Below are positions 12,078-14,218 of a DNA stretch of 37,838 bases, one piece after another. Each line of letters starts with the position of its first letter. Position 1 is the stretch's first letter. The notes under the pieces were generated by a model that saw only the letters and a list, made by a program, of their open reading frames with translations, searched no databases and was not told where the DNA came from. The DNA lies in contig JAQUVQ010000025.1 in assembly GCA_028693285.1 (NCBI GenBank), positions 1 to 37,838 on the forward strand, read 5' to 3'. The stretch comes from Smithellaceae bacterium (lineage in GTDB: Bacteria > Desulfobacterota > Syntrophia > Syntrophales > Smithellaceae). Position numbers and translations under genes: made by a program.

Positions 12078-13709
12078 TCAACCCTCCGTCTCCGCTTCGA
12101 CAAGGCTCCCGGCGTAGTATTTCTCGCGGAGCTTCGGCTTTTCAATTTTTCCGGTGGGATTGCGCGGCACCTGTTCAAAAAAGATTTTGCGCGGACGCTT
12201 GTAGCGCGGGAGCGCCTCGCAGAATTTTGCCATTTCGGCTTCCGAGCCGGCAAAACCCGGCTTAAGCTCGATGACCGCCGCGACGATCTCCCCCAGCCGA
12301 TGGTCGGGCAGTCCGATCACCGCCGCATCCTTGATGGCTTCGTGCGTGCGCAGAAAGTCCTCGATCTGCACCGGATAGATGTTTTCGCCGCCCGTGATGA
12401 TGACGTCCTTCTTGCGGTCCACCAGATAGACAAAGCCGTCTTCGTCCATCCGCGCCATATCGCCCGTGAACAGCCAGCCGTCCTTCAGGATCTCGGCCGT
12501 GGCTTCGGGGTTTTTGTAATAGCCTTTCATCACGCCGTCACCCTTGACGCAAAGCTCGCCCACGTCGCCCTGCTTCACGGGAGCACCGTTTTCATCCACA
12601 ATCCGGATTTCCCACTGATAGCCGGGCTTTCCGATGGCGCCGACTTTGTGGATATTTTCCAGCCCCAGGTGAACGCAGCCCGGACCGATGGATTCCGACA
12701 GGCCGTAATTGGTATCGTAATCGTGGGTTGGAAAATGTTCCCTCCAGCGCCGGACCAGGCTCGGCGGAACCGGCTGCGCGCCGATGTGCATCAGCCGCCA
12801 CTGGTCGAGCTGATAGTCTTTCAGCTTGAGGTCGCCCCGCTCGACGGCGTCCAGAATATCCTGCGCCCACGGCACCAGAAGCCAGACGATCGTAATCTTC
12901 TCTTCGGACACCGCCCTGAAAACCCATTCCGGTTTGACGCCGCGCAACAAAACCGCGCGGCTTCCGGCCAGGAAGCTTCCGAACCAGTGCATCTTCGCGC
13001 CGGTGTGGTAGAGCGGCGGAATGCACAGGAAATTATCTTCGCGCGTCTGCCGGTGATGGTTCATTTCCACTTCACAGGCCATCATCAGGCTGCGGTGGTG
13101 ATGAAGGATCGCCTTGGGAAAGCCGGTAGTGCCGGATGAAAAATAGATGGCCGCGTCGTCCGCGTCGGAAAGCGGAACGCGCGGCGCCACGGAGGAGCAG
13201 CACGCGGTGAGCGCGTAGTAGCTTTCGGCGAACGCGGGCAGGTCCTGTCCCACAAACAGGCGGAGTTTTACTTTCGGCATCTGTTCGCGGATCGCTTCAA
13301 TTCGCTGGGTGAATTCCGGCCCGAAGATCAAAACGTCGCAATCGGCCAGATCCAGACAGTATTTGATTTCTTCTTCCGTATAGCGGTAGTTGAGCGGGAC
13401 GGCAATGGCGCCCGTCTTGAGGATGCCGAAATAGATCGGCAGCCATTCCAGACAGTTCATCAGCAATATTCCAACCTTGCGCCCCTTTTCCAGACCTCTT
13501 TGCAAAAGAAAGTTGGCCAGGCGGTTGGCTTTGTCGTCAAACTCGCGCCAGGTCATCTCCCGACGGTAGCGATTTTCCGGATTGGTTTCGACCAGCTCAT
13601 AATCCTTCCAGCTTGCCTTTACTTCTTTGATTTGAGGATTGATCTCCACCAGGCTTGTTTCTTCGCAGTAGAGAGAAGCGTTTCGGGTTAGAATTTCTGT
13701 AATGGGCAT
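12078..13709 (-). CDS. acyl-CoA synthetase (AMP-forming, ANL superfamily)
   Basis: 543 residues, the usual size. The AMP/phosphate loop YFSSGTTGFPKA is near residues 189-200, the adenine region YGLSES near 335, the hinge region with LFTGD and the DRKKDVIITGGENIYP block near 415-440, and the C-terminal lysine motif NPTGKIEK near 515. It joins a carboxylic acid to CoA through an acyl-adenylate. The presence of a medium- or long-chain binding tunnel cannot be judged, so substrate is open. It has its own likely promoter at 13815-13843 and stands alone, distinct from the acyl-CoA synthetase in the beta-oxidation run (19363-21033). Confidence 0.9.
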   Translation of the reverse strand: MPITEILTRNASLYCEETSLVEINPQIKEVKASWKDYELVETNPENRYRREMTWREFDDKANRLANFLLQRGLEKGRKVGILLMNCLEWLPIYFGILKTGAIAVPLNYRYTEEEIKYCLDLADCDVLIFGPEFTQRIEAIREQMPKVKLRLFVGQDLPAFAESYYALTACCSSVAPRVPLSDADDAAIYFSSGTTGFPKAILHHHRSLMMACEVEMNHHRQTREDNFLCIPPLYHTGAKMHWFGSFLAGSRAVLLRGVKPEWVFRAVSEEKITIVWLLVPWAQDILDAVERGDLKLKDYQLDQWRLMHIGAQPVPPSLVRRWREHFPTHDYDTNYGLSESIGPGCVHLGLENIHKVGAIGKPGYQWEIRIVDENGAPVKQGDVGELCVKGDGVMKGYYKNPEATAEILKDGWLFTGDMARMDEDGFVYLVDRKKDVIITGGENIYPVQIEDFLRTHEAIKDAAVIGLPDHRLGEIVAAVIELKPGFAGSEAEMAKFCEALPRYKRPRKIFFEQVPRNPTGKIEKPKLREKYYAGSLVEAETEG

Positions 13710-13814: not shown

Positions 13815-13843
13815 ACGATACGAATTTCAGGCGTTGATGTCAA
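13815..13843 (-). promoter_or_regulatory. sigma-70-type promoter for the acyl-CoA synthetase gene
   Basis: On the minus strand TTGACA (13843-13838) is perfect, 17 bases separate it from TATCGT (13820-13815). Leader of about 100 bases to the ATG at 13709. Confidence 0.4.
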
Positions 13844-13881: not shown

Positions 13882-14031
13882 TCAGTGGAAAAGGACATGG
13901 TAAATCACGTAAACCCACGAGAGAATGCCGTGAAAGATGGCCCAGAGCACCGAATGACTGTAGCTGTAGCTGATGGTGATGGCCAGCGCCGTGCCGAACG
14001 TAATTCCGGTGGCAATGATATGACCCTGCAT
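13882..14031 (-). CDS. 49-residue membrane protein of unknown function
   Basis: A very short gene with strong expression signals: AGGAGG 5 bases before the ATG at 14031 and a perfect consensus promoter 46 bases further up. The protein has two hydrophobic stretches, ITFGTALAITISYSYS and VLWAIFHGILSWVYVIYHVL, joined by a short polar turn, so it is probably a one- or two-pass membrane micro-protein. The pattern S-x-L-W-A-I-x-H-G-I-L-S-W-x-Y-V-I-Y recurs in small proteins of other bacteria as far as I recall, but no function is known to me. It sits between the acyl-CoA ligase gene and a decayed area. Confidence 0.72.
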   Translation of the reverse strand: MQGHIIATGITFGTALAITISYSYSHSVLWAIFHGILSWVYVIYHVLFH

Positions 14032-14076
14032 GACAACCTCCTGTGATTGCGTAGGATTTCGATGTTCTCGGGCGGC

Positions 14077-14105
14077 ATTATAGAAATTCCCGCCTTCCCT
14101 GTCAA
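14077..14105 (-). promoter_or_regulatory. perfect consensus sigma-70 promoter
   Basis: Minus strand: TTGACA (14105-14100), spacer 17 bases, TATAAT (14082-14077). All 12 positions match consensus, and the spacer is optimal. It points at the 49-residue membrane protein with a leader of about 40 bases. No other promoter in the window is this good. Confidence 0.8.
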
Positions 14106-14112
14106 GAAAACA

Positions 14113-14132
14113 GGGGGAACAGGCGTTCTCCC
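14113..14132. other. hairpin just upstream of the consensus promoter
   Basis: GGGGGAAC and GTTCTCCC form an 8-base-pair stem (one G-T) with a 4-base loop AGGC, starting 8 bases beyond the -35 box. There is no T-run on either side long enough for an intrinsic terminator. It could be an operator-like site or chance. Confidence 0.35.
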
Positions 14133-14218
14133 TCAAATTATTTTCGGTTGAAATCGCACCGGAATTGACTTTATAAAGCGCGCCAACGTCAAATACAAAG
14201 CGCGCCGCCGTTTCCGCC

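What the first reader, a model, noticed from the sequence alone, without database searches (positions are those of the whole stretch)
13882..14132. Perfect consensus promoter driving a 49-residue membrane micro-protein
The minus strand has TTGACA, 17 bases and TATAAT, all 12 consensus positions, then AGGAGG at ideal distance from an ATG, ahead of a tiny two-stretch hydrophobic protein. Such strength is rare and suggests the product is needed in quantity. An 8-base-pair hairpin adjoins the -35 box, possibly a control site. The protein pattern recurs in other bacteria as far as I recall, but function is unknown to me.
Basis: partly seen in the sequence, partly recalled or inferred. Interest (0 to 1): 0.55.

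Follow-up and report, generated by a model that had tools for sequence, protein, structure and literature searches.

The report
Membrane microprotein shared with phages
A 49-residue protein with two membrane helices, driven here by an unusually perfect promoter, turns out to belong to a highly conserved but unnamed family scattered across many bacterial phyla and also carried by environmental phages; what it does is not yet known.

Summary
On the minus strand, TTGACA-17-TATAAT (12 of 12) precedes AGGAGG, 5 nt and ATG, opening a 49-residue ORF. Only 3 such 17-spacer promoters exist in this 2.68-Mb Smithella-like genome (reversed-pattern control: 0). The same promoter survives in all 4 close species while flanks diverge, and the coding sequence is under strong purifying selection (dN/dS 0.014-0.144). 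The hairpin is imperfect, near chance, and unconserved.

The ORF belongs to a family absent from Pfam, NCBIfam and PADLOC and without a convincing PHROG. I found it in about ten bacterial phyla, patchily (7 of 20 genomes in its genus; 2-23% in five phyla), almost always single copy, and in 50 distinct viral contigs. W30, H34, G35, W39 and Y41 are nearly invariant and lie on one face of helix 2.

Best reading: an autonomous inner-membrane hairpin exchanged between bacteria and phages. An Imm-like exclusion role is my leading but unproven guess (about 0.33); a subunit or regulator of a widespread membrane machine is almost as likely.

The parts
13882..14031 (-). 49-codon gene (plus stop) for a two-helix membrane microprotein
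   Evidence: Translation; relatives in 31 genome loci; dN/dS 0.014-0.144 in 25 of 28 pairs, 3 saturated; helices 12-25 and 28-48
14077..14105 (-). perfect sigma-70 promoter, TTGACA-17-TATAAT
   Evidence: 12 of 12; one of 3 in the genome; hexamers and spacing identical in 4 of 4 species of the clade
14037..14042 (-). Shine-Dalgarno AGGAGG, 5 nt before the ATG
   Evidence: Sequence; AGGAGG kept in all 8 aligned sequences
14069..14071 (-). inferred transcription start, about 7 nt after the -10 box
   Evidence: Inference from promoter spacing; no transcript data available
14112..14133 (.). imperfect inverted repeat upstream of the -35 box; probably chance
   Evidence: 8 pairs with one mismatch; 4.6% of shuffles as good; not visible in relatives
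12078..13709 (-). downstream acyl-CoA ligase-type gene (AMP-binding), 172 nt away; neighbour, probably not partner
   Evidence: Pfam PF00501 E 5.7e-78; found without the microgene in other genomes of the genus
13815..13843 (-). promoter-like site (10 of 12) before the ligase gene
   Evidence: similar TTGACA-containing stretches precede the ligase in several genomes without the microgene

Best explanation
Shown: the feature is a stand-alone, conserved gene for a two-helix membrane microprotein, with a perfect promoter retained in its Smithella clade. Its family is scattered through bacterial phyla and is also carried by environmental phages. Inferred: the protein inserts as a short hairpin, probably with both ends in the cytoplasm. 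Small residues of helix 1 (G9, G13, A17, S21) pack against helix 2. The conserved face of helix 2 (W30, A31, H34, G35, S38, W39, Y41, V42) docks on a widely conserved inner-membrane target or on itself. Inferred and least certain: the main benefit is Imm-like. A copy made in quantity beforehand alters the inner-membrane site through which incoming phage DNA passes, so that a resident phage or a bacterium with its own copy resists further infection. The confidence given is for this last role; I put the family identity at about 0.95 and the hairpin that docks through its helix-2 face at about 0.7.
For: Relatives in 31 genome loci, 7 plasmid records and 50 distinct viral contigs (44 plus 6 new). 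18 of the 30 viral contigs tested (of the 44) hold a terminase large-subunit match. Bacterial and viral profiles align over 54 columns at 99.9%. Patchy: 7 of 20 in the genus, 6 of 197, 10 of 299 (two weak, with stops), 5 of 249, 34 of 150 and 8 of 149 in five phyla. One copy in 12 of 12 genomes checked. The gene is absent upstream of the same ligase in other species of the genus and lies on another contig than the ligase in two. Helix-2 conservation has its peak at 100 degrees (0.0006 of shuffles as strong). The tree needs 8 phage/bacterium label changes, at least 4 forced by starred branches. Viral neighbours include dCMP deaminase, glycosyltransferase, methyltransferase and helicase genes; T4 imm lies beside dCMP hydroxymethylase, beta-glucosyltransferase and DNA polymerase genes.
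Against: No sequence relation to T4 Imm (hhalign probability 0.2%) and only a 17-column, 14.5% match to HK97 gp15. No defence gene family recurs more than twice among 130 bacterial neighbours, though no control set was scanned. No PADLOC match of the family. Strict conservation across phyla is unlike what I recall of exclusion proteins, which vary quickly. No convincing match in 50,697 annotated phage records with five queries. In Gemmatimonadota the gene sits in an operon-like place before a lipoyl-ligase-family gene in 12 of 20 loci, which suggests a cellular role there.
Confidence: 0.33

Rival explanations
1. A small accessory subunit or regulator of a widespread inner-membrane machine (transporter, protease, insertase or respiratory complex). 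Phages carry it as an auxiliary gene to keep that machine working or to bend it to their use.
For: Strong purifying selection, near-invariant residues on one face of helix 2, solo gene with no partner common to all clades, strong promoter kept in its clade, operon-like link to a lipoyl-ligase-family gene in Gemmatimonadota.
Against: Presence in only 2-23% of sampled genomes of five phyla and 7 of 20 of its own genus means that no universal machine needs it. No candidate partner was identified.
Confidence: 0.32
2. A self-assembling channel or permeation pathway: copies of the hairpin oligomerise and the buried W30/H34/S38 face conducts protons or other ions.
For: Near-invariant W30 and H34 four residues apart on a conserved helix-2 face and small residues every fourth position of helix 1; the gene works without a fixed neighbour. 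Resemblance to the His/Trp pair of known proton channels is recalled, not tested.
Against: An open channel made in quantity should harm a syntrophic cell short of energy (inference). No structural match in the PDB, and the single-chain model cannot show assembly.
Confidence: 0.15
3. A holin-like or type I toxin-like membrane peptide that damages the membrane.
For: Size, two helices and presence in phages.
Against: Single copy in 12 of 12 genomes and strict conservation. Among 134 viral neighbours the 25 most frequent families shown per library include only one cell-wall hydrolase member (the rarer families were not printed). No Rfam match in the window and only a 9-of-12 promoter-like site on the opposite strand inside the leader.
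Confidence: 0.08
4. A leader or arrest peptide that controls the downstream gene.
For: Sits 172 nt before a ligase gene in the window and just before a lipoyl-ligase-family gene in Gemmatimonadota.
Against: Downstream genes differ between clades; the ligase has its own promoter-like site; the conservation lies along both helices rather than at the C-terminus.
Confidence: 0.04
5. A chance ORF behind a promoter for an RNA.
For: Short length.
Against: dN/dS 0.014-0.144, conserved start and RBS, relatives across phyla.
Confidence: 0.01

Closest known systems
T4 Imm (superinfection immunity protein; Pfam family Imm_superinfect, name recalled)
   Same: Small protein described in the record as an immunity-to-superinfection membrane protein, carried by a phage; imm lies among nucleotide-metabolism and replication genes. 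That its family is also bacterial and has two helices is recalled.
   Different: 83 residues; no sequence relation (hhalign probability 0.2%); the microprotein matches no Pfam family at E up to 1
HK97 gp15 (superinfection exclusion moron)
   Same: Short protein of a phage, 62 residues, reported as an exclusion protein (title seen in a reference list)
   Different: Only a 17-column, 14.5% match; HK97 gp15 lies among tail genes
Bacterial small accessory membrane proteins such as CydX, KdpF, AcrZ (recalled)
   Same: About 30-50 residues, strongly conserved, act by docking on larger membrane proteins
   Different: Those have one helix and a fixed partner; here two helices, no partner known, and viral copies
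PHROG families 34830, 7300 and 11342
   Same: Weak single-member hits
   Different: E 0.08, 0.0036 and 0.0085; each reached by one member only, so not this family

Membership tests
Imm_superinfect (T4 Imm) | Sequence match to the family | tested here: not met
   No Pfam hit at E up to 1; hhalign with T4 Imm 0.2%
Imm_superinfect (T4 Imm) | Two membrane helices, small size | tested here: met
   49 aa, helices 12-25 and 28-48
Imm_superinfect (T4 Imm) | Blocks entry of DNA from a second phage | not testable with these tools
   Needs a phage plating or DNA-entry assay
HK97 gp15 | Sequence match | tested here: not met
   17 columns at 14.5%
Known anti-phage defence families (PADLOC) | Match to a PADLOC model | tested here: not met
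   0 of 33 members at E up to 0.1
Holin / lysis protein | Next to an endolysin | tested here: inconclusive
   One cell-wall hydrolase member among 134 viral neighbours in the families shown; 38 of 63 Pfam and 99 of 124 PHROG families were not printed
Type I toxin | Antisense RNA or several copies | tested here: inconclusive
   Single copy in 12 of 12 genomes; no Rfam match; antisense transcription not testable
The family described here (bacterial and viral microprotein) | Profile match with near-invariant G13, S21, W30, H34, G35, W39, Y41 | tested here: met

The most novel reading that the evidence does not exclude
This is an unrecognised microprotein family, moved between bacteria of many phyla and their phages, whose 49-residue hairpin acts on a target so widely conserved that one sequence works in hosts from Bacillota to Gemmatimonadota: a portable, single-gene, membrane-level block to phage entry that bacteria such as this Smithella have put under a maximal promoter.
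Probability: 0.25. Interest if true: 0.8.

Novelty: new member of a known kind. Interest (0 to 1): 0.5.

Why it matters
A protein of about 50 residues that keeps the same residues across about ten phyla and in 50 viral contigs, yet is absent from Pfam, NCBIfam and PADLOC and has no convincing PHROG match, is a gap in annotation. In the annotated plasmid records it is called only 'hypothetical protein' or is not annotated at all. If it is an exclusion protein, one small gene would give a widely portable barrier to phages. If it is a regulator, its conserved face would point to an overlooked site on a common membrane machine. Either can be tested with a 150-base gene. The clade-specific perfect promoter also gives a candidate strong native promoter in a syntrophic genus (Smithella) whose genetics are little developed (my own knowledge).

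Tried and rejected
Rfam and tRNA scans of the window: nothing. The hairpin as operator: imperfect, near chance, not conserved. Strong promoter as a family trait: rejected, confined to the window's clade. Operon with the ligase: rejected as general, since the ligase occurs without the microgene and the microgene without the ligase beside it. Common partner gene: none across clades, but see the Gemmatimonadota link. Defence-island link: no family above 2 of 130 neighbours, no control set scanned. Structure search: 0 PDB matches; the sequence profile gave only a weak 27-position match to NADH dehydrogenase chain 6, E 0.047, taken as chance. Literature: peptide strings of the family in 5.39 million papers, 0 papers; topic searches found nothing on this family (listings only). 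One review was searched for passages on gp15 and Imm (PMC11436027). Viral searches with the single sequence found nothing; the profile was needed.

Full report
OBSERVATION. The minus strand carries TTGACA-17-TATAAT at 14105-14077, matching all 12 consensus positions. AGGAGG at 14042-14037 is followed by 5 nt and ATG at 14031; the ORF runs 49 codons to a TGA ending at 13882. Over the whole 2,677,756-base genome in which the window lies, the exact N17 form occurs 3 times, and the reversed control pattern 0 times. The claimed 8-bp hairpin next to the -35 box has a mismatch in the stem. Stems as good arise in 4.6% of Markov shuffles and in 39 of 1260 tiles of the window, and I do not see it in the relatives.

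A REAL GENE. The named close relatives are Smithella and Smithellaceae genomes. In the four copies of the window's clade (window, L011, L012, L013) the promoter is 12 of 12 with the same 17-base spacing, although the surrounding sequence and synonymous sites have diverged (pS 0.18-0.59 among these four). All eight aligned sequences keep AGGAGG and the ATG. Of 28 pairs among these eight, 25 gave dN/dS from 0.014 to 0.144 and 3 were saturated at synonymous sites. The perfect promoter is not a family trait. The other three copies of the genus score 8-9 of 12 at best. Among 26 other bacterial loci 3 reach 10 of 12 (0.9 expected), and among 35 viral loci none does (1.1 expected).

THE FAMILY. A pattern-and-tblastn scan of genome contigs found 31 loci from Thermodesulfobacteriota, Spirochaetota, Acidobacteriota, Planctomycetota, Gemmatimonadota, Delongbacteria, Pseudomonadota, Marinimicrobia, Bacillota and others (record titles, labels). 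Seven plasmid records carry it. A profile from 33 rows found it in 6 of 197 genomes of the window's phylum, 10 of 299 of the phylum of a Shewanella genome (two of them weak and broken by stops), 5 of 249 of the phylum of a Vagococcus genome, 34 of 150 of the Gemmatimonadota, 8 of 149 of the Acidobacteriota, and 7 of 20 genomes of its own genus, some of them incomplete. All 12 genomes checked by handle had exactly one copy. The window's protein matches no Pfam or NCBIfam model, and none of 33 members matches a PADLOC model. In PHROGs only weak single hits appear.

PHAGES CARRY IT. The single sequence found no viral relative, but the profile found 44 viral contigs, and a profile of viral rows found 43, of which 6 were new by contig name, so 50 in all. 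Of 30 contigs given to the test (of the 44), 18 have a terminase large-subunit match. Bacterial and viral profiles align over 54 columns with 99.9% probability. The viral neighbours scanned (134) include dCMP deaminases (4), glycosyltransferases (3), DNA methyltransferases (3), terminases (3), helicases (2) and integrases (2) and one cell-wall hydrolase; only the top 25 families of each list were printed. Five queries found no convincing match in 50,697 annotated phage records (the best was E 7), so the viral carriers are so far environmental ones; the low-complexity filter of that tool may hide some. On a tree of 114 distinct rows, made from few columns, the phage label needs 8 changes, at least 4 of them forced by well-supported branches. 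Most viral rows form one group. The Smithella copies group with a Spirochaetota MAG copy and a Gemmatimonadales copy (starred branches), which fits horizontal gain.

ANATOMY. AlphaFold2 gives helices 12-25 and 28-48 (mean pLDDT 72, pTM 0.33). Over 114 rows the near-invariant residues (window numbering) are G9 (107 of 114), G13 (114), A17 (110), S21 (114), S27 (108), W30 (110), A31 (105), H34 (112), G35 (112), W39 (114), Y41 (113) and V42 (109) (that output numbers columns 3 higher than the protein). In helix 2 the conservation repeats with a peak at 100 degrees (0.0006 of shuffles as strong), so one face is constrained; helix 1 alone gives no significant signal (0.27). Mean K+R counts are 1.6 in the N-terminal part, 0.4 in the loop and 0.7 in the C-terminal part, which fits both ends inside, weakly.

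CONTEXT. In the window's clade the gene lies 171-201 nt before an AMP-binding ligase gene. 13 of 20 genomes of the genus have that ligase. Among the 12 whose upstream region was read (one of them only over 378 nt), the microgene is present in the 4 of the clade and absent in the others, with different sequence in its place and, in several, a TTGACA-containing stretch nearer the ligase. In G014 and G017 the microgene is on another contig than the ligase. Elsewhere neighbours differ. The exception is Gemmatimonadota: in 12 of 20 loci, including the genome of L018 itself and two near-identical loci, a lipoyl-ligase-family gene (Pfam LplA-B_cat) follows directly on the same strand.

HOW IT PROBABLY WORKS. 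Shown: a real, conserved, patchily distributed gene whose product has two predicted helices, one of them with a constrained face. Inferred: a hairpin in the inner membrane that docks through helix 2 on itself or on a widespread membrane protein. Least certain: the benefit. Carriage by phages in neighbourhoods of nucleotide-metabolism and DNA-modification genes, patchy solo bacterial copies and the small two-helix form resemble T4 Imm, whose gene also lies among such genes, but there is no sequence relation and no exclusion data. I give this role 0.33, a regulator or subunit role 0.32, a channel 0.15, a toxin or holin 0.08.

VERDICT. The promoter strength matters for this clade only; the larger finding is an unnamed microprotein family shared by many bacterial phyla and environmental phages. 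Its function is open.

Noticed in passing
L082-L101 (Gemmatimonadota), and L018, L033: The microgene is directly followed on the same strand by a lipoyl-ligase-family gene in 12 of 20 loci, an operon-like link not seen in the other clades examined.
   Followed up: partly
L109 (G000:C29:26201-26229) and L110 (G000:C47:6123-6151): The other two perfect N17 promoters of the genome. One precedes by 34 nt an ORF of 346 residues that looks like a VKOR-type membrane protein (recalled resemblance), the other a 102-residue ORF.
   Followed up: partly
L139, L106, L108: A viral and two Acidobacteriota members carry a Cys-Gly-Cys motif just before helix 1, perhaps a metal-binding subfamily.
   Followed up: no
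L052 (G273:C79:28771-28866) and G849:C27: Apparently decayed copies: one 7 kb from an intact copy, without a usable start; one with an internal TAG.
   Followed up: no
L118, L120, L122-L124: A group of viral contigs keeps the microgene directly before a glycosyltransferase gene of PHROG 3408.
   Followed up: partly
window 13815-13843, - strand: A second TTGACA promoter-like site (10 of 12) before the ligase gene, with similar stretches in several relatives.
   Followed up: partly
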